DNA of 41,097 nucleotides from NCBI GenBank assembly GCA_020435005.1, contig JAGRAE010000005.1, forward strand, positions 1-41,097, written 5' to 3'. The stretch's first letter is position 1, and each line of letters starts with the position of its first letter. This stretch comes from Bdellovibrionales bacterium. Its GTDB lineage: Bacteria > Bdellovibrionota > Bdellovibrionia > Bdellovibrionales > UBA1609. The notes under the pieces were generated by a model, which was not told the DNA's origin, did no database searches, and worked only from the letters and a program-made list of their open reading frames with translations. Positions 1,392 to 16,433 of this stretch are shown here, piece by piece. Made by a program: the position numbers and the translations under genes.

Positions 1392-2747
1392 CTAGTTTAC
1401 CCCAAAAAATTTCAAGCCCAAAGTCGCAATTCCTAAAAAGCTAAAAAAACTGATGATATCAGTAAACATTGTTACTAATACACCACTTCCAGTAGCTGGG
1501 TCCCAGCCCATTTTCTTTAGGCCTAGAGGGACCACAGAACCAGCAATGGCGGCAAGCAGAGAATTTATAATCATGGAAATACATATGATGATTGAAACCA
1601 TAAGATTTCCTTTCCAGACAAATGTTAATAGGCCGGCAGAAATACCTGTCATTATACCAATGCTAACACCAGCAATAACTTCCTTCAAAACGGCTTTGTA
1701 ATAAGAGATAAAACTAAAATCACCTGTAGCCAACCCACGGGTGACAACCGTTAATGATTGAATGGCTGTATTACCACCCATACCAGCTACAATATTTTTT
1801 AAACTGGCTAAAATAATTAAATGGCTCATTGTATTTTCAAATAAACTTACAACTGAACTGGCTAAAGCCGCTAATAATAGATTTAAAAACATCCAAGGTA
1901 TGCGTTTTTGTATGGAATACTTTGCAGGTGTAAATACGCGATCATCCTCTTGCAAACCAGCTTGTGCGTAAATACCAGCAGTGGCTTGTTCTTGTATAAT
2001 ATCTAAAACATCATCTACAGTGACAATACCTAAAAGTTCGCGGTCATGATTAATGACCGGAATGGCAATTAAATCATAATGTGAAACCAACTCGGCAGCT
2101 TTGGCCGCAGGCTCTTCGGGGTAAATAGTAACGACATCTTCTTTTACAATTTCAGATAGAGGCTTTTGTTCAGGGGCAGTTGCTAATTGGCGAAGAGAAA
2201 TAATTCCTGCGAGCTGATGACGTTCATTGATACAATAGATGTAATAGATAGACATCATTTGTGCTTTTTTACGGAGAATACTTAAAGCTTCACCAGCATT
2301 AATTTCTATAGGTAAATGAAAAACACTTGCATGCATCATTCGCCCAGCAGATTCCTCGGGATAACTGAGGTATTGTCTGATTTTTTCTGCCATGTCGTGA
2401 TCGACTTGGGCTAAGAGTTCATTTTGTTCGCCTTTGCTCAACAGGCTCAGAAAGTATGCCGCATCGTCAAAATTAGATTGTTCTATCAGTTTTAATTGCT
2501 GCTTCGCTTCAATTTTTTGCAGCGCATCTTGGAGTTGCTGTTCTGGAACAATGACAAATGTCTCAACAGCTTTATTAATGACTAATAGAGCCTCAACAAA
2601 TAGCCTCAACTCCCTTTTATTTAGGGAATTAACTAGAGATGCGAGGTCATGAGGGTCTAATTTGTTGAGAATAGACCTCAATGGCCGGTTGTTTCTGCCA
2701 ACCAAAAGGCGTTTTATAATTGAGGAGTTCGCAGCATTTAACTTCAT
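1392..2747 (-). CDS. mgtE: MgtE-type magnesium transporter
   Basis: A 451-residue protein with full MgtE architecture: an N-terminal helical superhelix domain (MgtE_N, about residues 15-130, starting around LNKLDPHDLASLVNSL), a CBS pair (about 130-255, with the diagnostic SAGRMMH and TVDDVLDIIQEQ segments), a connecting helix, and a five-helix membrane domain from about residue 285 with the ion-pore segment GNTAIQSLTVVTRGLA. MgtE is a homodimeric inner-membrane Mg2+ channel gated by Mg2+ binding to the CBS and N domains. The ATG at 2747 gives the usual family length; a TTG at 2786 would run through the greA promoter and is less likely. No M-box-like leader fits in the short upstream region. 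It diverges from greA. Confidence 0.93.
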   Translation of the reverse strand: MKLNAANSSIIKRLLVGRNNRPLRSILNKLDPHDLASLVNSLNKRELRLFVEALLVINKAVETFVIVPEQQLQDALQKIEAKQQLKLIEQSNFDDAAYFLSLLSKGEQNELLAQVDHDMAEKIRQYLSYPEESAGRMMHASVFHLPIEINAGEALSILRKKAQMMSIYYIYCINERHQLAGIISLRQLATAPEQKPLSEIVKEDVVTIYPEEPAAKAAELVSHYDLIAIPVINHDRELLGIVTVDDVLDIIQEQATAGIYAQAGLQEDDRVFTPAKYSIQKRIPWMFLNLLLAALASSVVSLFENTMSHLIILASLKNIVAGMGGNTAIQSLTVVTRGLATGDFSFISYYKAVLKEVIAGVSIGIMTGISAGLLTFVWKGNLMVSIIICISMIINSLLAAIAGSVVPLGLKKMGWDPATGSGVLVTMFTDIISFFSFLGIATLGLKFFGVN

Positions 2748-2773
2748 TTTAACACATATAATCTCTTTTGTAG

Positions 2774-2801
2774 TTGTCTGCGTCAAAGAAATTCATATAA
2801 T
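2774..2801 (+). promoter_or_regulatory. Sigma-70-like promoter of greA
   Basis: TTGTCT at 2774-2779 and a perfect TATAAT at 2796-2801 are separated by 16 bases, with the predicted start about 30 bases before the greA ATG. It lies in the narrow divergent region with mgtE, where TTGACG on the other strand (2781-2786) could be the -35 element of a weaker, overlapping mgtE promoter. Confidence 0.7.
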
Positions 2802-2838
2802 AGCGCTTTTTAAATCTAGCCAGATGGTGGAGACAAAT

Positions 2839-3315
2839 ATGAGCGATAAAGTACCAATGACAGTTGCCGGAAAAGAAAAGTTGGAAGCTGAACTCAAGAA
2901 CTTAATGCAAAATGAGCGTCCAGCTGTAATTAAAGCTATTGAAGAAGCTCGTTCCAATGGGGATTTAAGCGAGAACGCCGATTATGATGCTGCAAAAGAA
3001 AGACAAGCCTTTTGTGAAGCGAGAATCGCAGACATTCAAGGAAAACTGGCAAATGCCGAAGTATTTAACACCTCTACCTTAAAAAGTGATAAGGTTATTT
3101 TTGGTGCAACAGTTGAGTTATTAGATTTAGATTCAGAAGACAAAATAGTTTATCAAATTGTTGGAGAAGATGAGGCTAATGTTAAAGACGGTAAAATTTC
3201 AGTTTACTCACCATTAGCTCGCTCAATTATTGGTCGATCTAAAGGGGATGTAGTAGAGTTTAAGAGTCCAAAAGGTGAAAAAGAATACGAGATTATCAAC
3301 TTCGAATTTAAGTAA
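2839..3315 (+). CDS. greA: Transcription elongation factor GreA
   Basis: A 158-residue protein of exactly the usual GreA length. It opens with PMTVAGKEKLEAELKNL and has the coiled-coil tip loop EARSNGDLSENADYDAAKE, where the acidic D-x-x-E (DLSE, then D) residues place Mg2+ in the RNA polymerase active site. It ends with the FKBP-like C-terminal domain (SPLARSIIGRSKGD). GreA rescues backtracked polymerase by stimulating cleavage of the nascent RNA 3' end. The ATG at 2839 has a GGAG site six bases upstream. The open frame extends further upstream to 2662, but that part overlaps the promoter and the mgtE start and is not GreA-like. The next gene begins inside the greA 3' end. Confidence 0.97.
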   Translation: MSDKVPMTVAGKEKLEAELKNLMQNERPAVIKAIEEARSNGDLSENADYDAAKERQAFCEARIADIQGKLANAEVFNTSTLKSDKVIFGATVELLDLDSEDKIVYQIVGEDEANVKDGKISVYSPLARSIIGRSKGDVVEFKSPKGEKEYEIINFEFK

Positions 3316-5515
3316 ATCAGAAAACCCAGGTGGATCTTCACAGGCCTGGGTCATATTTCTTGTTGGATTATTTTTAAGTACATTTTTTGGTGGAGCTATA
3401 AGAGCGTTTTTGTCCCCTCAACAACTTTCTGCGTGGGTGGAAAAAAAACTAGTAGAGAAAAATCCAAAGTTTTATCTTAATTTTGACCATTTAGAATTTT
3501 CTTTAGCTGATGGAATATGGCCAAAATTTGGCTTATATGTGAAGGGTTTAAAGTTAACATCTAAAGATCCGTGCATAACCCAATCACAACTAACTATTTC
3601 AGAAGTCTACATTCCAATAAGAATTAATACTCTATTCAAAAAAAGTATAAGCTTTTCAGACATTGTTGGAAAAAAAGTTGAATTTGTTTACAAAGAAGCT
3701 GTTTGTAATTCCTCTTTTTCTGATTCTCACTTAAGGCCACCAATGCCAACTTTGCCGATGGATACACAAATTGAAGAGGAGAGCCATAAAGTTTTAAATG
3801 AGATTCGTGATTTTGTAGAAAATCGATTTTTAAAAGAGTTATCAAATAGTAGAAATTGGTTCTACACATTAAGCTTCGAAAAATTTCTAATTTATAATGG
3901 GGGGACGGACAAAGTAGGTTTGATCTTTGACAACTTTAAAGTGGACCTAAACCGTTTTGATAAAAAAGTTTTTATTTCTACAAAGTTATCTTATCAGTCA
4001 CCTCAATATTTAATAGATGAGTTAAAACCACTTGATTTTGAATTAGTACTTTCTAAAGAGGATTTAACTTTAAATGGAAAGGGTCGTTTTAAAGAGGGAG
4101 AATTAAAGTTACATGGTTCCTTAAATATACCGAGTGAAGAATTCCAATTGCATGTCTCTTCAGAATATTTTCCTGTGGGTGAAATAATTCACTCAATAAA
4201 AGATATTAAAGGGATTCCAACAAGTATAAATCCAAGGCTATTATGGTTTTCTTGTAAAGCCTCTGCATCTGGCATAGTTGGGGATTATAAAAACATTCAA
4301 GTGATTGCTAAGAATTGTGGTGTAAGGGGAGAAGTTGGCAAACTATCCACCGAAGAAATAATTTTTTATCCATTTTTAAAAAATCACATTGAACCATTTA
4401 CAGCCGAAGTAGAAAATTTCTCACTTAAATATTTTGCAGAAGCTATTGGCAGTTCTGATCTAAAGAGTACTTTTACATATTGGGGAGACTTAAATGGTCA
4501 ATTGGAATACAATGACGAACAATTAAAATTTAGCGGATCATTAGATAAAATAGAAGCCATTTTTTCACATAAGGGAAAAAAGCGTTTACAACTTATACGT
4601 AAAGCTATTGGTGAAGTTAGTTGGAAGCAAAATAGAGTCTCGGGTATAATAAATGAGATGGAAATTGTGGGTGGGGAGTTTAAAGGACTAATTTCATTTA
4701 ATTTGAATGAAAGTTTAAAAAATGGAATTCTGCAAACTAAAATTGACAGTCTAAAGCTGAGCCGCCCAGTGATGAGATTATACTTTGATATTGAAGACTC
4801 AAGTCCTTTGCAAGTATATGGGAAAATGAGTTTAAAACAGGGTGAATTGGAAGAGTGGCAAGGCTATTTGGGACTTTCTCATATGAACCTCTCTCATCTT
4901 GATTTGAACACTGTAAAAGTGGACACAAAGTATAGCAGCCAATCATGGGATTTAGGAGTTAAAATAAAAGAAATAGTTATTCCTACTGGGTCTAAAGTAT
5001 TTAGTGAATTGGAGAAAATACTAATTTTAGAGAAAGCTCCAGGCCAATTCACATTTAATAAAATCTCTGGAAATTTACAATTACGGAGTGATACAGGGGA
5101 ATGGAAAGATTTTGCTGCTAGAGAAAAAGATTTACCAATAATACTTTCTTCTGCTGGAAAGTTTGACTCAACAAATAAAGTCATTGGCTGGTTAAATGTT
5201 GAAAAAAAAGAACATAAGTGGATGCCATGGGAGGTTACAGGGAGCCTTAATGAAATATTGTTTTCACCATCAACTCAACTTTTAAAAGCGATACGTCCTG
5301 AAAACTCAACTGTAAAAATTGAAGATAAAATGAGTGTTGAACAACGAAGAGAGGCTTTTCAAAAAATCATGGCAAGTCGTAAGGGACTTGAGTTAAAAGG
5401 TTTTACTGAAAAAGTTGTAGACACAGCTAAAAAATGGATTCCCGATTTCTCAAATTCAAATAAAACCATCAATAATGAGGGTAATAACAAAAAAGAGAAA
5501 AGTGTATCTAAATAG
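3275..5515 (+). CDS. AsmA-like membrane-anchored periplasmic protein
   Basis: A 746-residue protein with an N-terminal membrane segment (about residues 25-45, WVIFLVGLFLSTFFGGAIRA) followed by a long beta-rich soluble region. The stretch from about 65 to 120 (LEFSLADGIWPKFGLYVKGL, then regular alternating strands) has the look of the AsmA/TamB/YhdP start, in which the chain forms a lipid-conducting groove across the periplasm. Function as an envelope lipid transporter is inferred from that resemblance only. The only usable start seen is GTG at 3275, which overlaps greA by 41 bases in another frame and suggests translational coupling. No second membrane segment is seen; the C terminus is lysine- and asparagine-rich. 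Confidence 0.65.
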   Translation: MKKNTRLSTSNLSKSENPGGSSQAWVIFLVGLFLSTFFGGAIRAFLSPQQLSAWVEKKLVEKNPKFYLNFDHLEFSLADGIWPKFGLYVKGLKLTSKDPCITQSQLTISEVYIPIRINTLFKKSISFSDIVGKKVEFVYKEAVCNSSFSDSHLRPPMPTLPMDTQIEEESHKVLNEIRDFVENRFLKELSNSRNWFYTLSFEKFLIYNGGTDKVGLIFDNFKVDLNRFDKKVFISTKLSYQSPQYLIDELKPLDFELVLSKEDLTLNGKGRFKEGELKLHGSLNIPSEEFQLHVSSEYFPVGEIIHSIKDIKGIPTSINPRLLWFSCKASASGIVGDYKNIQVIAKNCGVRGEVGKLSTEEIIFYPFLKNHIEPFTAEVENFSLKYFAEAIGSSDLKSTFTYWGDLNGQLEYNDEQLKFSGSLDKIEAIFSHKGKKRLQLIRKAIGEVSWKQNRVSGIINEMEIVGGEFKGLISFNLNESLKNGILQTKIDSLKLSRPVMRLYFDIEDSSPLQVYGKMSLKQGELEEWQGYLGLSHMNLSHLDLNTVKVDTKYSSQSWDLGVKIKEIVIPTGSKVFSELEKILILEKAPGQFTFNKISGNLQLRSDTGEWKDFAAREKDLPIILSSAGKFDSTNKVIGWLNVEKKEHKWMPWEVTGSLNEILFSPSTQLLKAIRPENSTVKIEDKMSVEQRREAFQKIMASRKGLELKGFTEKVVDTAKKWIPDFSNSNKTINNEGNNKKEKSVSK

Positions 5516-9304: not shown

Positions 9305-10210
9305 ATGAAGAATCTAATGCTATTACTAATACTTATATTCGCGATGCCTGCATGGTCATCAAATTTACAATCTGTCTCTTCACGTGAGGTATATCAGTTT
9401 CTGGGGTTGATACCTTCGGATTGCCAGCAAAGCTTACATGCTGGAAAAAGTCCTCGCCAAAATAATAATTATCAGAATAATGTCGATGAGGAAATAGATC
9501 CATTTTATATTGAGCCTTACGTTCCTACTCAGAATGGATATCTTCCTGCTTATAACGATACAAATATTGGAGAAGGGTATTTTCCAAGTCCTGACGGGAG
9601 TGGTGGTTTAGAAGGGCCTTTTAGCTTTACTGGAAAGTTATATGACGACCGTGGCAACTATATGCCTGGCAAATATGATAGTGGTTTTAGGTGGCCCAAT
9701 CAAGATAGAAGAGATTCGCCAAATTACAAAGATACAGATACGAGCCGTGATAGAGGGCGTGGTGGCGACAATGGTTATGGTAGTGGTATTAATGGTGGGG
9801 ATAATATTGGGAGTGTTTACATAGGTGCATCTACAAATTGGCCTGGCGATGAAGGAGACTTTATTCCCTATCAACAAGCCAAGAATTGGCCAGGTGAAGG
9901 AGACGACTGGGTTCCCTATCAACAAGCTAAGAATTGGCCAGGTGAAGGGGACGACTGGGTTCCCTATCAACAAGCTAAATCGAATGGATACCAAAATCCA
10001 CTTTATGATCCAAGACGTAGACAAGTGGACTACAGTGATGAGGATGTAGAAATAGATAACAGCCGCAGCTTAAGAATTCCAGCGTCTCCTCCAATAGGTC
10101 ATGAAAAATCAAGCAATATTAATGAAATGGACATTAGTGGAACTGATATAGGTAATGCCGAAATTGATAATACGGATGTTATAGTTGGCAATGTTTATAG
10201 ATTTCATTAA
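9305..10210 (+). CDS. Secreted low-complexity protein with 3x16-residue repeat
   Basis: A 301-residue protein with a signal peptide (MKNLMLLLILIFAMPAWSS). The mature protein is rich in Gly, Asn, Asp, Tyr and Pro and lacks a recognisable domain. Residues 178-225 are three tandem copies of a 16-residue unit; copies 2 and 3 read NWPGEGDDWVPYQQAK and copy 1 differs at a few positions. The C-terminal 40 residues alternate I/D/N (for example DISGTDIGNAEIDNTDV), like a short beta-solenoid turn. The only cysteine in the mature chain is in PSDCQQS. It ends directly against the convergent acyltransferase stop codon. A surface, adhesive or extracellular-matrix role is plausible but unproven. Confidence 0.7.
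   Translation: MKNLMLLLILIFAMPAWSSNLQSVSSREVYQFLGLIPSDCQQSLHAGKSPRQNNNYQNNVDEEIDPFYIEPYVPTQNGYLPAYNDTNIGEGYFPSPDGSGGLEGPFSFTGKLYDDRGNYMPGKYDSGFRWPNQDRRDSPNYKDTDTSRDRGRGGDNGYGSGINGGDNIGSVYIGASTNWPGDEGDFIPYQQAKNWPGEGDDWVPYQQAKNWPGEGDDWVPYQQAKSNGYQNPLYDPRRRQVDYSDEDVEIDNSRSLRIPASPPIGHEKSSNINEMDISGTDIGNAEIDNTDVIVGNVYRFH
9836..9979 (+). repeat. 48-bp tandem repeat, three copies
   Basis: Three in-frame 48-base units (9836-9883, 9884-9931, 9932-9979). Units 2 and 3 differ at only two bases, both silent, so that duplication is recent; unit 1 has diverged more. The unit codes for 16 residues of the secreted protein, so copy-number changes would keep the frame. Confidence 0.9.
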
Positions 10211-12055
10211 TCAATTTTTGCGATCTTCATAAAATTGATCTGTTTTATCTTTTAACATTCTTCTCATCATGGGCTTCGGAAATTCACTTAATTTTACAAC
10301 TATAAGCCCATCAATACTGTTAAATTCTTTATCAACACTGAATGCCACATACTTGGCTCCCATTTTAGAATAATAAGTAATAAGTGTTGGGACATTTTTT
10401 TCGCCCTCTAAGGTTTCAACTACAGCATTAAGGCCATCTAAGTTGTGAGCACCATGAAGTAGTTCGTTTAAATTTTGTTCACTTAAATCGGTTCGTAACT
10501 TATAAGGCAAATAAGGTTTAACCATTGATTGCATTTTATCTTCGGCCCCGTGGTGTTTCATAAGATATTCAATCATTATAAAACTGGCGAGTTTAGAATA
10601 CTCAGCACTTATACTTGCCGGTCCAAACAAAGATTTTATTTGTGGTCTTTGTAATAAAATTTTAGCTATTCCAGTTAATAAAATAGAGAGAGCTTGTGAT
10701 CCTTGATGCTTCGGAACAATAAAAGACCGTCCCAGTTCCATGGCTTCGCCAATTTGGTCTAAAAATTTAATATCATATTTAAAAAGGCTATGAGTGTAAA
10801 TGCCCTCAATACCAATTTTTTCCATTATATTGCTAACCATACCAAGTCGATAAGCTCCAACCAGTTCATCATTAGCTTTGTGCCAAATAAATATGTGTTC
10901 ATAATGCTTATCGTATTTATCTAGGTCATAGGCTAATCCACTTCCTTCACCTTCAGCGCGAAAGGTGATTTCCCTAAGGCGACCAATCTCGGCAACTATA
11001 TTAGGTATGTTTTCATAGTTGGCTATATAAACCCTAAAATCATTGGTTTCGTAGACTAAACTTTGTGGGTTTAAATTTATTAAGTCTTCTCGTAGCAGCG
11101 CTTTATCTATTTCTAAACCAACAGGTAATAATTTTCGTGGTTTAACCGGTTTATTTTTTTTTATTCTTTTTTGAATAAAATCGAGTCGAGAATTTATTAG
11201 CTGTGCATCTCCACCTAATAGATAGGTGCGTATTCTGAAGTATTCAGCTAAGGATCTATTAGACTCAATATGTTTAAATTGATCATAGGAAATAGTTGCA
11301 CCAATATGCATATCGATATTTTGCTGTCGATGTCTGAGCACTTCGAAAACCATTAATAAACCACGCACTCCCAGAGAAATTTTACGCAAGATTCGAGTCA
11401 AAAAATTACTAGGATTTTCAAATAAAAACACACTGACTAATTGAAATAAAAAACTATTTTTTCCCTTAAAATAAATGGGTAAAACCTGTGCCTTTGATTC
11501 TTTTGCAATTCGTGCAACCGAACGACTCCATCGCTTGTCATAAGCTTTCCTCCACGGTGGGAAGGCTGTTGACACTTCTCCCGCAGGAAAAAGTATAAGA
11601 GCTCCTTCAGCTTTTAAATGGTGAATGGCATTTTGAATTTGTAATCTGTTTTGAATCTTTGTGGACAGTCCACGACTCTCGTCAATATCTACAGAAAACA
11701 AATAGGGTGCTACTTCGGGAATGGCATTGAGTGCAGCATTGGCTATAAACATAAAATCTTGTCTTACTTCACTAAGTTTAGCAGCAAGGGTTATAGCCTC
11801 AATGCCACCAAAGGGATGATTAGCAATAATTAGTAAAGGACCTTTTTGTGGGATTTTATTTAAATCATTTTCTGAGACAATGACTTTAACTTGTAAGGCT
11901 TTTGTAGCTGCTTGCCAGAAGTTAAAGTTTTCATTTATGTAAGTGAGTGCTCTATCGTGTAACTTTGACAGCTTCTTAAAGCCGGTAATTATCTCAGCAA
12001 CATTTATTAAATGGTTTTTAAGTTTAGAGTAATGTGAACGACGCAATGTTAACAT
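10211..12055 (-). CDS. Fused PlsC-type and OlsB-type acyltransferase (OlsF-like)
   Basis: A 614-residue two-domain protein. Residues about 45-270 are a PlsC-like O-acyltransferase: NHPFGGIEA (79-87, the acid in the usual H-x-D position is Glu) and FPAGEVS (156-162). Residues about 330-590 resemble the GNAT-like N-acyltransferase OlsB (EGSGLAYDLDKYDKHYEHI, then VGAYRLG and AMELGRSFI). This order matches bifunctional OlsF enzymes, which make the whole ornithine lipid: the C-terminal half N-acylates ornithine with a 3-hydroxy fatty acid and the N-terminal half adds the second acyl chain. The amino-acid head group cannot be told from sequence. It lies 40 bases after the AAA+/M41 gene, likely in one transcript. 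Two unrelated activities fused by chance is the alternative. Confidence 0.75.
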   Translation of the reverse strand: MLTLRRSHYSKLKNHLINVAEIITGFKKLSKLHDRALTYINENFNFWQAATKALQVKVIVSENDLNKIPQKGPLLIIANHPFGGIEAITLAAKLSEVRQDFMFIANAALNAIPEVAPYLFSVDIDESRGLSTKIQNRLQIQNAIHHLKAEGALILFPAGEVSTAFPPWRKAYDKRWSRSVARIAKESKAQVLPIYFKGKNSFLFQLVSVFLFENPSNFLTRILRKISLGVRGLLMVFEVLRHRQQNIDMHIGATISYDQFKHIESNRSLAEYFRIRTYLLGGDAQLINSRLDFIQKRIKKNKPVKPRKLLPVGLEIDKALLREDLINLNPQSLVYETNDFRVYIANYENIPNIVAEIGRLREITFRAEGEGSGLAYDLDKYDKHYEHIFIWHKANDELVGAYRLGMVSNIMEKIGIEGIYTHSLFKYDIKFLDQIGEAMELGRSFIVPKHQGSQALSILLTGIAKILLQRPQIKSLFGPASISAEYSKLASFIMIEYLMKHHGAEDKMQSMVKPYLPYKLRTDLSEQNLNELLHGAHNLDGLNAVVETLEGEKNVPTLITYYSKMGAKYVAFSVDKEFNSIDGLIVVKLSEFPKPMMRRMLKDKTDQFYEDRKN

Positions 12056-12095: not shown

Positions 12096-15000
12096 TTATT
12101 GAGTTGGCGAAAGAGCTGTATGACAGCTAACCCCTTGATCTTTTAGGGTTTTTACAGCCTCTTCAAAGCCATCTATGATTGTTAAAACTTGAGGTTTTTC
12201 CTGTGGCTTGATGTTCTTTATAGCTATCATTCTTTCGTTCTCATGAAATTCCACCTCATTGGCAACTTTTTTAGTGATAATTGTATCTATACTTGGCAAA
12301 AGTTCCTCTTGCAGTTTAAAGCTAAATTCTTTTGCTAATAAGGCTTCAACTATTAAGGTTGTTTGATATTCGCTTAAAATTAAGAGCGAGTATTGTTTTA
12401 AGTTTTCATCACTTTTAATAATATTTAAAGCTTCTTCAACATCTGATGATAACACTCCTTTGGCACGTCGTTGACCTTTGTCACGTCTTTTTACATTTTG
12501 CCTAATTGGTTCTAGTAGAATATCGAAATCTTCTAGAAGTTCAGCTCGTTCTATAGAATTATCTTCTGTGTATATAGTATGATTATTCAAAAAACTCTTC
12601 ATTTCACCATCAATAATTTTACCTTTACCGGATAGATCGCTACCTAATGGTATTAATGCAGTTTCTAAATTAATCAATAAGGCTTCTCTGGCTAGAGCTT
12701 GTGCTTCAGTTAAAAGTCGGTCTTTTAGTTTCTCAAAAAGTTTTCTTTTTTCATGCGTAAGTGTGGCTATAAAATTATCAATATTCTCTGGGTCAGACAA
12801 AGACTCGAGTCCCCATTCCTCTTCAAGTCCATAAATAAGAATAGCAATTTTAGCTAACTGAGTGGCTCTTTTTATATCATTTGATTTTCCACCGTCGTGA
12901 CGGGCTCCTTTTGTTAACAATTTTTGTGCTTCAAATCCACCATAAAGAGTAGCCATCTCTCTAACAATATACTCTCTAGTAATATTGAGTTTTTTAACTT
13001 TTTTAGATTTTGCTACACCCTCATAGGGAATGATTTCACCACCAATTTTTGTAGCGCCACGAATTATACTCACACCTTTATGTTCTTGATAGTCGCCAAA
13101 AAAATACTGTTCAACTATAGCATGTCCAGCTTCGTGGATCCCGGTCAATTTTCGATTTATATCAGGTGTTTCCATTTCAAATTCAATTTCTTTTCCCCGC
13201 AAGGTAAAGCGAATAGGTTCGTACTGACCTTTTACATGTACGTTAAAGGCAATTTCTGTCACTTTTTCTTCACCCATTTCAACAATTTTAGTGTTTTGTT
13301 TATCTAGAGACAGCAAAATATCACTGCCAGTTTCTACTCGATGTTGATACATAGTCATGCGAAAATGGGGTACAAAAACTTTATTAAACATGGAAACTAT
13401 AGAAGCTCCTTGGGATTCAACATTAAATCCTTCTTTTTCTAAAATATCTATAATGTCATCAAAAGCTTCTTCACTTGGAAAATATATATTCCACCCCCGA
13501 CGTGAAGGATGAGGGCGTAAGGATTCTAGTGCTTCTTGCATCTGTAAATAACTTAATGCTCTAACATGACCGTAACCAAGGGGGCCAAAAAAGTAAATAT
13601 TTCTTTCGTCAATACGGTTGATGAGGGGCGGTGATAAATAACGCTCTAATACAGATCGGCGATAGCTTGGGCTACTCATCATAGTTTCATGAACTTCACG
13701 ATAAGCTTCTAATCGCACATACTCAGGCAAGTTTCGGCTGATATTCTTGTAATCTTCAATACCAATATTGGCATTGACAACAAAAATAATTTTTCCCATG
13801 GGCCGAGGTACACCATCTGAAAAGTCAGTGACTACAGCTTCTCTAAATAAATCAAATAACATATTTAGAACTTGTTCAGCATTATCTGCATTTACGAGTT
13901 CCTCTAAACTAACGACCATTCCGTCAGGATTGCGGTCGTAATGCTGCATAAAAATGGATGGAATAAAATCATCGCCAATTTTTTCACCAAAAAACATTCT
14001 TTTTATATCAGACTTACTTTGAACTTGACCAAAATTTAGCGGAAGTAAAGGAATTTTTAATGCTCTTGCAAGTTCTTTAGATGTTTGTGATTTACCAGTG
14101 GAACTCATTCCAAAAAATGCAATTATTTTTGCTGTGTCTTTTGCTTCGGCAATATCTTTATTTGTACGTAAACTCTCTTCCATAGCAATAGCAAGTTCTG
14201 TGAGTCTTTCTGTAATATGCTCAATACCAAAAACTCTTTTGTTCAAGCGCTGAGGTAAAGTTAAAAGTTCATTTAATCGATCATCACTAATGGGCTGCTT
14301 ATCTCTTTGTGAAGCAGTGGCACGAATAAATAATTCAATGGCTTTTGTTTTTTTTCCTTTTGATTTAGGGGTGATATTTAGTTTCATATTAGCTGTGCCA
14401 TCTTTATTTTTTTGAATAGATAAATGCACGTGATTTCCATAATGTGGTTCAGGTTTTAAATGCCCAGCACGTATAGCATCAAACAATGTAGCTTCAACAA
14501 TATTGCGGATGCGATCATCTGTTGGACGAGCATTATTTTCTGATATATAGTTAAATTCTTGCATAAATAGAATCAGGTTCTCATCCCAGCTGAGATCGAC
14601 TGGACCCCAAGAACCAGAAACTTCTAATAATAATTGCTGAAGTAGTTCCATCTTATTTTTTAAGATGCGGCGAAAACCTTCAGGACTTGTTGGTTTCATT
14701 AAAATGAGAGAACTGTCATCTATTCGGTTTAAAGTTTCATCAGAAATACCAGGTGCACTCGGGTTGCGGGAAGACATGCTGAGATTAGTTTTACGGATAG
14801 CTTCACGTAATACATACTTATTATCTTTTAAGTCTTCATAGCGACGCATGCGTTCTTCATGGCTGAGTGGTTCTCCCGTTCTTCTTCCTTTTTCATCTTT
14901 AGAAGTTGTTAAATGTGCGCCTTCATTTGAGGCTATGGAAATATTAATGGGTACATAAATTTGTTGTTCTCCACCATTGGGATTTTTAACTGTAACATAA

Positions 15001-16433
15001 CCATTTTCCAAGAGTTGTTTTAAAAGTTGGTCTGTGTTGCTTTTGGACCAGTTGTGGCGCTCATTAATAAAAATTTCACCAGATTCAGGTGGAAAATAAC
15101 CATCAAAAACCATGCCGGGACGCCAATTTTTATTTTCAATAATTTTATATAAGGACTCTCCATTTTTAGACTTTTCTTGATTTTCTTCGCTGTTAACGGG
15201 AACTATTTTATAACGCCCCGCTGAGTGCAGAACTAAAAATTCGATGAGTGGTGGAATGGACTCAGAACCCCTATAGCCAGTGGGTGCACCCAAAATTGTC
15301 CATAAGTCAGCTTCATTGGCGGCAACAGGAGTGCGAAACAAATGATCTAAATGTGCGCCTAAGTAGCCATGTATTGCATCAATTTTTACCTTCACTACAG
15401 TATCTTTACCAGTGCCAGGTTCACCCATTAAATATTTAATCTGTGGTATTTGATTAATACCTAAACCTAAAAAAGCAATACGTAATTCTTGATCCATTAT
15501 AAGTTCAATAGCATCATCTTGATCAATCACTACAGATTTTAAATGAGACTCAATATTTTTTAAAACATCGATCATTGAAACATCATCAGCTAAACTAACA
15601 TTGTTTAAAGTGGAACCCGTCAGGGAATCAACATATTCTTGGTATTCCTTTTGGTAAGTGATCAGCTCTTGTATAACTCCACGAATAAAGTTTTTATCTT
15701 CATTGTCCAAATCTAGACTTAATGAATCTTGTAAGATTTGTAAAAACTCAGGATCTTCCTTTTTAATCTTCATTTGTATAAAGTCTGCACCTAGCTGTTC
15801 TTTAACCATGTCTAAAATATCAATAAGATGGTGAAAACGTTTGGCTAGTTCTGGAGGAAACTCTGGCCGGTCACGAATTTCATCTGTTTCTTGTTCGCGG
15901 TGATAGAGGCGACCATTCAAATACTTTGATTTTTTTTCTAATGAAAGTTTTGTTGAGGCTAAGAGGGAACGCAGCTCACCTTTGCGATTTAAGCCAGTTT
16001 TAATAGCTTCATTGATTTTAGTTTGAATTTTATCTAACCATCTTTTGGTGTCTTCACGATCAGCAAAATGTAAATTTAAATCTTTAGCTTGATTTTTCAA
16101 AGGTCGAATAAATTTTGCCTCATCAAATCTAACTATTTTACGTTGAGCTTCTACAATTTCTTCAAATATCTTTTGAGATAGATTTGTTAAGCCATTGTTT
16201 TGAGCATTAATTATCTCTGCTTCAAATCGCTTATAAAGAGCATCAAAAACTTCACCGTAGGTATACTTGCCACATTCTCGTATATTGTGGGTATCCTTCT
16301 GAAAATCACCTGAATTTAAATGTTTAATTAAAAATAAAGCTTTCTGTGGATCAGCTAAAGTAGGCGTTGTTATGAAGCTTATTAGAATCGCTAAAAAAAC
16401 AATTCTAACATTGCTTTGTATAAATCTAATCAT
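12096..16433 (-). CDS. Exported or anchored double AAA+ (ClpB-like) / M41 zinc protease fusion
   Basis: A 1445-residue protein of unusual build. Residues 1-27 look like a Sec signal peptide (R3, R10, hydrophobic core, TLA then DP). A helical region (about 30-300) follows. AAA+ module 1 has Walker A GEPGTGKD (K343), ILGAPTGYRGSE, Walker B IFINE (E458, with Asn in place of the usual Asp) and a LNRID arginine-finger motif (R570). Module 2 has Walker A GMSSTGKS (K781), Walker B VVSLEE (E844, Asp replaced by Leu) and INRID (R940). Both resemble ClpA/ClpB second modules. Residues about 1095-1240 are an FtsH-type M41 peptidase: HEAGH (H1100, E1101, H1104) and SNDIKRAT with the third zinc ligand D1186. 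The M41 site looks intact. Expected role: ATP-driven unfolding and proteolysis; where it meets ATP if exported is unclear. The OlsF-like gene follows. Confidence 0.8.
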   Translation of the reverse strand: MIRFIQSNVRIVFLAILISFITTPTLADPQKALFLIKHLNSGDFQKDTHNIRECGKYTYGEVFDALYKRFEAEIINAQNNGLTNLSQKIFEEIVEAQRKIVRFDEAKFIRPLKNQAKDLNLHFADREDTKRWLDKIQTKINEAIKTGLNRKGELRSLLASTKLSLEKKSKYLNGRLYHREQETDEIRDRPEFPPELAKRFHHLIDILDMVKEQLGADFIQMKIKKEDPEFLQILQDSLSLDLDNEDKNFIRGVIQELITYQKEYQEYVDSLTGSTLNNVSLADDVSMIDVLKNIESHLKSVVIDQDDAIELIMDQELRIAFLGLGINQIPQIKYLMGEPGTGKDTVVKVKIDAIHGYLGAHLDHLFRTPVAANEADLWTILGAPTGYRGSESIPPLIEFLVLHSAGRYKIVPVNSEENQEKSKNGESLYKIIENKNWRPGMVFDGYFPPESGEIFINERHNWSKSNTDQLLKQLLENGYVTVKNPNGGEQQIYVPINISIASNEGAHLTTSKDEKGRRTGEPLSHEERMRRYEDLKDNKYVLREAIRKTNLSMSSRNPSAPGISDETLNRIDDSSLILMKPTSPEGFRRILKNKMELLQQLLLEVSGSWGPVDLSWDENLILFMQEFNYISENNARPTDDRIRNIVEATLFDAIRAGHLKPEPHYGNHVHLSIQKNKDGTANMKLNITPKSKGKKTKAIELFIRATASQRDKQPISDDRLNELLTLPQRLNKRVFGIEHITERLTELAIAMEESLRTNKDIAEAKDTAKIIAFFGMSSTGKSQTSKELARALKIPLLPLNFGQVQSKSDIKRMFFGEKIGDDFIPSIFMQHYDRNPDGMVVSLEELVNADNAEQVLNMLFDLFREAVVTDFSDGVPRPMGKIIFVVNANIGIEDYKNISRNLPEYVRLEAYREVHETMMSSPSYRRSVLERYLSPPLINRIDERNIYFFGPLGYGHVRALSYLQMQEALESLRPHPSRRGWNIYFPSEEAFDDIIDILEKEGFNVESQGASIVSMFNKVFVPHFRMTMYQHRVETGSDILLSLDKQNTKIVEMGEEKVTEIAFNVHVKGQYEPIRFTLRGKEIEFEMETPDINRKLTGIHEAGHAIVEQYFFGDYQEHKGVSIIRGATKIGGEIIPYEGVAKSKKVKKLNITREYIVREMATLYGGFEAQKLLTKGARHDGGKSNDIKRATQLAKIAILIYGLEEEWGLESLSDPENIDNFIATLTHEKRKLFEKLKDRLLTEAQALAREALLINLETALIPLGSDLSGKGKIIDGEMKSFLNNHTIYTEDNSIERAELLEDFDILLEPIRQNVKRRDKGQRRAKGVLSSDVEEALNIIKSDENLKQYSLLILSEYQTTLIVEALLAKEFSFKLQEELLPSIDTIITKKVANEVEFHENERMIAIKNIKPQEKPQVLTIIDGFEEAVKTLKDQGVSCHTALSPTQ

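What the first reader, a model, noticed from the sequence alone, without database searches (positions are those of the whole stretch)
12096..16433. Exported or anchored double ClpB-type AAA+ unfoldase fused to an FtsH-type M41 zinc protease
Seen: a 1445-residue chain with a signal-peptide-like N terminus, two complete P-loop modules (K343, K781), two NRID arginine-finger motifs (R570, R940) and an intact HEAGH plus SNDIKRAT peptidase. Known: FtsH has one classical AAA module fused to M41 and faces the cytoplasm; ClpB-type double modules are normally not fused to a protease, and ATP is absent from the periplasm. Also seen: both Walker B motifs keep the catalytic Glu but have lost the Asp (IFINE, VVSLEE). 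Inference: this is a new unfoldase-protease class. If exported, it may act where ATP is available, for example in a host or prey compartment, or the N terminus is a cytosol-facing anchor.
Basis: partly seen in the sequence, partly recalled or inferred. Interest (0 to 1): 0.8.

Follow-up and report, generated by a model that had tools for sequence, protein, structure and literature searches.

The report
Secreted double-Clp unfoldase fused to protease
A bacterium related to the predator Bdellovibrio encodes a large protein-shredding machine that needs ATP yet carries a secretion signal, and it belongs to a set of similarly exported, single-cysteine-tagged enzymes, which suggests these bacteria run ATP-driven machinery outside their own cytoplasm, perhaps inside prey.

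Summary
In detail: 12096-16433, minus strand, is one intact 1445-codon gene. It belongs to a real family. Full-length homologues (about 26-38% identical) occur in 27 of 141 genomes of the order, which I identified as Bdellovibrionales. The chain is signal peptide, variable N-domain, two tandem HSP100-D2-type AAA+ modules, an M41 zinc protease domain and a C-terminal cysteine tag. FtsH is homologous only in the protease part.

The signal-peptide-like start is conserved and no other transmembrane segment exists, so the body is most likely outside the cytoplasm. The protein is not alone. The same genome, or close relatives, also encodes signal-peptide-bearing versions of other normally cytosolic, mostly ATP-dependent enzymes: a three-module paralogue, a PrkA kinase/giant AAA/SpoVR-YeaH operon, an SF2 helicase, a J-protein, a PhoH and an ATP-grasp. 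Many carry a terminal C-x-x-h-[LF] tag that is often the only cysteine of the mature protein. In one relative the paralogue is followed by a same-tagged FGE-domain protein diversified by a retroelement.

Export is strongly inferred, not shown. Action on prey proteins with prey ATP is my preferred but unproven mechanism. I found no description of the family or the exported set in the papers I could search.

The parts
12096..16433 (-). whole gene, 1445 aa, exported double-AAA+ M41 protease
   Evidence: full-length homologues
16353..16433 (-). signal-peptide-like N terminus, residues 1-27 (MIRFIQSNVRIVFLAILISFITTPTLA|DP)
   Evidence: rule-based prediction; only hydrophobic 19-mer above 1.6; conserved in complete homologues
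15579..16352 (-). variable N-terminal region, residues 28-285, no Pfam match
14334..15578 (-). AAA+ module 1 (HSP100 D2-type with ClpB_D2-small lid), residues about 286-700
15399..15425 (-). Walker A 1, GEPGTGKDT (res 337-345); GKDT in all 17 aligned members
15267..15278 (-). substrate pore loop GYRG (res 386-389), GYVG in most members
   Evidence: (aligned to Skd3 GYVG)
15060..15077 (-). Walker B 1, EIFINE (res 453-458); N-E in all 17 aligned members
14724..14726 (-). arginine finger 1, R570 in LNRID
   Evidence: invariant
13314..14276 (-). AAA+ module 2 (HSP100 D2-type), residues about 720-1040
   Evidence: Pfam AAA_2 E 1.5e-4 (below cut-off) in window protein; 6.6e-19 in the best member; PDB 1e-30 by profile
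14088..14111 (-). Walker A 2, GMSSTGKS (res 775-782)
13899..13916 (-). Walker B 2, VVSLEE (res 840-845); D-E in most homologues
13614..13616 (-). arginine finger 2, R940 in INRID
   Evidence: invariant
12564..13175 (-). M41 peptidase domain, residues about 1087-1290
   Evidence: Pfam PF01434 7.3e-15; PDB FtsH
13122..13136 (-). zinc site HEAGH (res 1100-1104)
12861..12884 (-). third zinc-ligand motif SNDIKRAT (res 1184-1191, D1186)
   Evidence: alignment to FtsH
12111..12125 (-). C-terminal cysteine tag CHTAL (res 1437-1441); Cys is 9th from the end; conserved in almost all homologues
10211..12055 (-). next gene downstream, same strand, 40 bp gap: acyltransferase plus GNAT (Acetyltransf_5), 614 aa; possible operon partner but not conserved as neighbour
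   Evidence: neighbours of homologues

Best explanation
An exported AAA+ protease. After Sec export the mature chain would form a ring in which two stacked HSP100-D2-type AAA+ modules unfold a substrate. The GYRG pore loop of module 1 grips it and the arginine fingers couple neighbouring subunits. The threaded chain is passed into an M41 zinc-protease ring that cuts it. The variable N-domain would select substrates. The lone C-terminal cysteine tag would attach the enzyme to a partner, carrier or membrane. The protein belongs to a set of exported, single-cysteine-tagged, mostly ATP-dependent enzymes of Bdellovibrionales. Because ATP is scarce outside the cytoplasm, the set most plausibly works where ATP is present, above all in a prey or other target cell. 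Shown by sequence: the architecture, motif conservation, signal-peptide-like N termini, the tag and its co-occurrence. Inferred: hexamer, ATP-driven unfolding, cleavage, role of the tag. Least certain: prey as the place of action.
For: Full-length family in 27 of 141 genomes of the order. Profile matches: HSP100 D2 at 1e-30, with module 1 matching Skd3 over the GYVG loop and ClpB over the D2-small lid as separate stretches; FtsH M41 at 4e-24. Pfam M41 in 17/17, AAA_2 in 16/17, ClpB_D2-small in 16/17. Catalytic motifs conserved. Signal peptide by rule in the window protein and most complete members; the housekeeping ClpA, ClpB, two Lon-like proteins and FtsH of the same genome are not exported by the same rules. 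No TM in the mature chain, whereas own FtsH has two hydrophobic segments. Other exported ATPases in the own genome: three-module AAA-M41, PrkA, SF2 helicase and a J-protein. Conserved exported PrkA / giant AAA / SpoVR-YeaH operon, adjacent to or within about 25 kb of the protease gene in two relatives. Terminal Cys tag in 17/23 M41 members against 0.9 expected, and in 18/41 other large exported proteins of these chosen loci against 1.4 expected. In many members it is the only Cys of the mature chain. The order contains B. bacteriovorus: the single contig of G048 is 3,988,594 bp, exactly strain Tiberius (PMC3539863).
Against: No experiment and no SignalP; export is rule-based. ATP supply outside the cytoplasm is unexplained. 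Module 1 has unusual Mg-site residues (GKD and NE) and module 2 lacks the sensor-2 Arg, so ATP turnover by each is uncertain. Bdellovibrio itself (g38, including Tiberius) lacks the protease, so it is not needed for predation, and the lifestyle of the window organism is unknown. No second-step secretion system was linked to the tag.
Confidence: 0.62

Rival explanations
1. Periplasmic or cell-surface zinc protease whose AAA+ modules have become ATP-independent scaffold, ring-forming or substrate-binding domains. It needs no extracytoplasmic ATP.
For: Altered Mg site in module 1 (GKD, NE) in all 17 aligned members; sensor-2 Arg lost in module 2; Walker-B Asp to Glu in the window protein; one member (G052, L078) has lost Walker B of module 1.
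Against: Walker-A Lys, Walker-B Glu, sensor-1 Asn and both arginine fingers are strictly or nearly strictly conserved across members only 26-38% identical, and the exported set includes PrkA, a helicase, PhoH and ATP-grasp whose known chemistry uses NTPs.
Confidence: 0.2
2. Inner-membrane protease anchored by an uncleaved N-terminal segment with its body in the cytosol, that is an FtsH-like enzyme with extra modules.
For: Only the M41 half is FtsH-like; an anchored cytosolic enzyme has ATP at hand; not every member shows a perfect cleavage site.
Against: Single hydrophobic segment with a positively charged n-region and downstream A-x-A-type sites; no second helix to return the chain; several unrelated ATPases in the same genomes show the same N-terminal feature; few cysteines other than the tag.
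Confidence: 0.08
3. A component of conflict with phage, other bacteria or hosts rather than of feeding: an exported unfoldase-protease whose target recognition is diversified by partner proteins.
For: In G043 the three-module paralogue is followed by a same-tagged exported FGE-domain protein that is a DGR target: 115-bp VR/TR pair, 18 mismatches, all at template A. In G300 the FGE domain is fused to the protease. In G316 neighbours include an exported tagged 2H phosphoesterase with a weak Acb1 match and an exported PhoH-PIN. Patchy, HGT-like distribution.
Against: The DGR is seen at one locus of the paralogue, not at the window's family; own genome has only one weak FGE match; window neighbours are housekeeping-like.
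Confidence: 0.1

Closest known systems
FtsH / Yme1 (M41 AAA+ proteases)
   Same: M41 peptidase with HEAGH and the Asp zinc ligand; ATPase and peptidase in one chain
   Different: FtsH has one classical AAA module of another clade, a two-helix anchor and a cytosolic (or matrix/IMS) body. Here there are two HSP100-D2-type modules, a signal peptide and no second helix.
ClpB / Hsp104 / Skd3 / ClpA (HSP100)
   Same: D2-type AAA+ fold, GYVG pore loop, NRI arginine finger, ClpB_D2-small lid
   Different: Two D2-type modules instead of D1+D2, fused to a zinc protease; exported; Walker A GKD and Walker B NE in module 1.
Plasmodium HSP101 (PTEX) and torsins
   Same: HSP100-D2-like AAA+ proteins that carry a signal peptide and act outside the cytosol (own knowledge); HSP101 is among the PDB hits and Torsin among weak Pfam hits in 8/17 members
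   Different: Eukaryotic, no fused protease; torsin works in the ER lumen where ATP is imported.
PrkA-YeaH-YcgB(SpoVR) operon
   Same: Domain content of the exported operon found beside the protease in relatives
   Different: The normal copies are cytosolic (about 510-aa SpoVR in most genomes of the order; bd0228-bd0231 in B. bacteriovorus, PMC5430801). The exported set is a divergent, giant, tagged duplicate.

Membership tests
FtsH (M41 AAA+ protease) | M41 zinc peptidase with HEXGH and third ligand Asp | tested here: met
   Pfam PF01434 7.3e-15; invariant columns; aligned to FtsH structures
FtsH (M41 AAA+ protease) | Single classical AAA module directly before M41; equivalog score over cut-off | tested here: not met
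   TIGR01241 scores 50.1 against cut-off 600 and matches only the M41 part; two D2-type modules
FtsH (M41 AAA+ protease) | Two-helix membrane anchor, body on the cytosolic side | tested here: not met
   One hydrophobic segment, at the N terminus; own FtsH shows two. Topology itself not measured.
HSP100 / Clp AAA+ | D2-type AAA+ large and small subdomains with GYVG pore loop | tested here: met
   module 2 lacks the GYVG loop and the sensor-2 Arg
HSP100 / Clp AAA+ | D1 followed by D2, with N- or M-domain (class I) | tested here: not met
   Window protein has two D2-type modules and no D1. A D1-like module with VDEIHTLG is present only in the three-module paralogues.
AAA+ protease (functional class) | ATP-dependent unfolding coupled to proteolysis | not testable with these tools
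   Needs purified protein; sequence motifs are present
Sec-exported protein | n-, h- and c-regions with signal-peptidase site | tested here: met
   Rule-based only; SignalP and experiment not available

The most novel reading that the evidence does not exclude
Some Bdellovibrionota export a whole ATP-dependent toolkit: double- and triple-AAA+ M41 proteases, a PrkA/giant AAA/SpoVR-YeaH operon, a helicase, a J-protein, PhoH and ATP-grasp. The members are marked by a terminal single-cysteine tag (C-x-x-h-[LF]) and act in an ATP-containing compartment outside the producer, most likely another cell. In some lineages the target binder is diversified by a retroelement.
Probability: 0.45. Interest if true: 0.93.

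Novelty: new variant of a known kind. Interest (0 to 1): 0.8.

Why it matters
All well-studied AAA+ proteases work where ATP is plentiful. A conserved family with the same engine and a signal peptide breaks that rule and makes a direct question testable: is there usable ATP outside the cytoplasm of these bacteria, or do they run ATP machines inside other cells? The co-exported set and shared cysteine tag give a handle for finding further members and a possible new sorting or anchoring signal. For predator biology it would be an enzymatic route to unfold and digest folded prey proteins using the prey's own ATP.

Tried and rejected
I did not hand in homologues from the genome search, because the tool's stated list of permitted sources does not name them. 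The genome-contig scan with the single protein found only an ordinary FtsH-like M41 match and viral contigs nothing. Plasmids gave no match and phages only weak Clp-type matches. 16S rRNA is missing from the MAG; the taxon was pinned instead through the exact length of the Tiberius genome in the same order. The idea that the Cys tag marks exported proteins in general was rejected: unbiased 420-kb and 400-kb samples show it in 2 of 22 large exported proteins of G043, both in the PrkA operon, and 0 of 15 in Tiberius. Enrichment of the tag in P-loop proteins among non-M41 exported proteins is only marginal (Fisher p 0.04). A CAAX-type prenylation box was considered and rejected, since the Cys is not at position -4. 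The adjacent acyltransferase as a tag-modifying enzyme is not supported: it is not a conserved neighbour. An exported Hsp70 was looked for in the own genome; the main hit is an ordinary-sized DnaK and the second a short partial match.
Full report
WHAT IS THERE. The finding at 12096-16433 is one uninterrupted ORF on the minus strand, 1445 codons with an ATG start. The window is an entire contig (C307) of a 3.39-Mb, 351-contig genome with 35% GC in the window.

FAMILY. Searches of whole genomes found full-length homologues. With the alignment of 17 members (A1) as a profile, 27 of 141 genomes of the order, 28 of 144 of the class and 29 of 369 of the phylum matched at E <= 1e-60. Members are about 26-38% identical to the window protein, and the distribution is patchy within every family. 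Invariant columns include Q305, G337-P-G-x-G-K-D-T345, the GY.GS loop glycines, N457-E458, N503, R570, R636, G780-K781, E845, N889, R940, Q1008-G1009, H1100-E-x-G-H1104, N1185-D1186 and R1189. This is far more than chance.

DOMAINS. With the single protein, Pfam sees M41 (7e-15) and a sub-threshold AAA_2. With the family it is clear: M41 in 17/17, AAA_2 in 16/17 and ClpB_D2-small in 16/17. Against PDB sequences the profile hits ClpB, Hsp104, HSP101, Skd3, ClpE, ClpC and ClpA D2 at E down to 1e-30 and FtsH at 4e-24. Separate stretches of one Skd3 chain match module 1 (including GYVG) and module 2, and the ClpB D2-small domain matches the lid of module 1. So both modules are HSP100-D2-type, not D1+D2. 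Module 1 always has GKD in Walker A and NE in Walker B among the 17 aligned members. Module 2 has canonical Walker A, a D-E Walker B in most members (E-E here), the arginine finger, but no sensor-2 Arg (QGASI or QGRSI) and no aromatic GYVG loop. FtsH's own equivalog model gives 50 bits against a cut-off of 600.

PARALOGUE. The genome holds a second such gene (G000:C286; L127 11110-15894 minus, 1594 aa). A three-module version (an extra N-terminal AAA module, which in L075 has the ClpB-D1 signature VDEIHTLG, then two D2 modules, then M41) occurs in 35 of 369 phylum genomes. The two- and three-module profiles align over 877 columns at E 1e-63. In a tree of the M41 domain they form two clades.

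EXPORT. The window protein begins MIRFIQSNVRIVFLAILISFITTPTLA|DP. A simple n/h/c-region rule calls a signal peptide in 17 of 29 M41-AAA members. Most of the rest are truncated at contig ends, frameshifted, or have an obvious hydrophobic start that narrowly fails the rule. The same rule calls no signal peptide on the genome's own ClpA, ClpB and two Lon-like proteins. No other segment of the window protein reaches membrane-like hydrophobicity (maximum 1.31 over 19 residues), while the genome's FtsH shows two. With positive charges before the hydrophobic stretch, the body is predicted to be outside the cytoplasm.

IT IS NOT ALONE. In the same genome, signal-peptide-bearing proteins include the three-module paralogue, a PrkA-like AAA kinase followed by a giant AAA protein (C337), a 1788-aa SF2 helicase and a J-domain protein (C296). 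A divergent SpoVR giant is also present on C115, but its 5' end is cut off by the contig, so its export could not be checked. In relatives, an operon of exported PrkA, giant AAA (1764-2179 aa) and SpoVR-YeaH(DUF444) fusion is conserved (L202, L205 with L054, L207, L210, L211 and others). It lies directly upstream of the protease gene in G024 and in one island with both protease types and an exported ATP-grasp in G034. The ordinary SpoVR (about 510 aa) remains in most genomes, so these are extra, exported copies.

THE CYSTEINE TAG. Nearly every M41-AAA member ends in a C-x-x-h-[LF]-like motif 5-14 residues from the end (CHTAL here). In many members this is the only Cys of the mature chain. PrkA and SpoVR-YeaH carry the motif soon after the signal peptide, giant AAA near the C terminus, and FGE near the N terminus. 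In the loci sampled, 17 of 23 M41 members and 18 of 41 other large exported proteins have it, against shuffle expectations of 0.9 and 1.4, and internal positions almost never have it. That sample was chosen around these genes. In unbiased stretches of one relative (G043) and of B. bacteriovorus Tiberius (G048), exported proteins in general do not have it. So the tag marks a specific set, not all exported proteins. What it does is unknown. A single conserved unpaired Cys suggests an intermolecular bond or a modification.

ORGANISM. The window genome is therefore in the order of Bdellovibrio but in another family. Bdellovibrio itself (g38) had no match for either protease.

A RETROELEMENT LINK. 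In G043 the three-module protease gene (ending NRCADLLSGKL) is followed by an exported 1056-aa protein with the same peptide after its signal peptide (SNRCADLLSGR) and a C-terminal FGE-sulfatase domain. The last 115 bp of that gene match a downstream template with 18 mismatches, all at template adenines (A>G 12, A>T 6), next to a reverse transcriptase and an Avd-like gene: the signature of a diversity-generating retroelement. In G300 the FGE domain is fused to the protease. This suggests, for the paralogue at least, a protease with a rapidly evolving target binder that shares its tag.

HOW IT PROBABLY WORKS. Best reading: an exported ring-forming AAA+ unfoldase-protease, working together with other exported ATP-dependent enzymes wherever ATP is available outside the producer, most plausibly in prey. 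The chain of inference weakens in that order: architecture (shown), export (strong inference), ATP-driven action (likely from conserved motifs), prey as the site (a guess guided by the order's biology and by the odd company of helicase, PhoH, kinase and J-protein). Rivals are an ATP-independent periplasmic protease, a cytosol-facing anchor, and a conflict system.

LIMITS. No SignalP, no usable structure (single-sequence models failed), no search outside this phylum with a sensitive profile, no experiment. Literature searches found no description of the family or of the exported set; that library is partial.

Noticed in passing
G000:C286 (L127 11110-15894, minus): Second exported AAA-M41 gene in the same genome, 1594 aa, three-module type with a degenerate first module; C-term ERCSRALSD.
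   Followed up: yes
L075 9459-15040: Diversity-generating retroelement targeting an exported, Cys-tagged FGE-domain protein directly downstream of the three-module protease: VR 12502-12616, TR 14926-15040, RT 13885-14904, Avd-like 13521-13907.
   Followed up: partly
L202, L205/L054, L207, L209, L210, L211, L213, L214; own genome C337 and C115 (C115 copy cut off at its 5' end): Exported duplicate of the PrkA-YeaH-SpoVR system with a giant AAA protein between, tagged with terminal cysteines.
   Followed up: partly
L138 8531-13897 (minus) and 2509-4281 (minus), own genome C296: Exported SF2 helicase (1788 aa, ends KKCDESLN) and exported J-domain protein (590 aa, ends HHCGKSLED) about 4 kb apart.
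   Followed up: partly
L221 1310-2833 and 13119-15077: Exported PIN-PhoH protein and exported 2H phosphoesterase (weak Acb1 match), both with SCPESL after the signal peptide, near a three-module protease.
   Followed up: no
L053 11398-14595 (minus): Exported circularly permuted ATP-grasp protein with CEEIL near the mature N terminus, between two exported AAA-M41 genes.
   Followed up: no
L070 12152-14896 and L060 16196-18964: Further exported AAA proteins (914 aa with two AAA modules; 922 aa) next to the family gene.
   Followed up: no
L063 11476-12066 and L078 3276-3860: Small exported proteins (about 195 aa) with C-terminal Cys tag immediately downstream of the protease gene in two genomes of one family; no Pfam match.
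   Followed up: no
window 9305-10210 (+): Exported 301-aa protein of unknown function with SDCQQSL in its N-terminal part, near the protease gene; possible partner.
   Followed up: no
L131 2999-6832 (own C55): Exported 1277-aa protein with GCESLF after the signal peptide; no convincing Pfam match.
   Followed up: no
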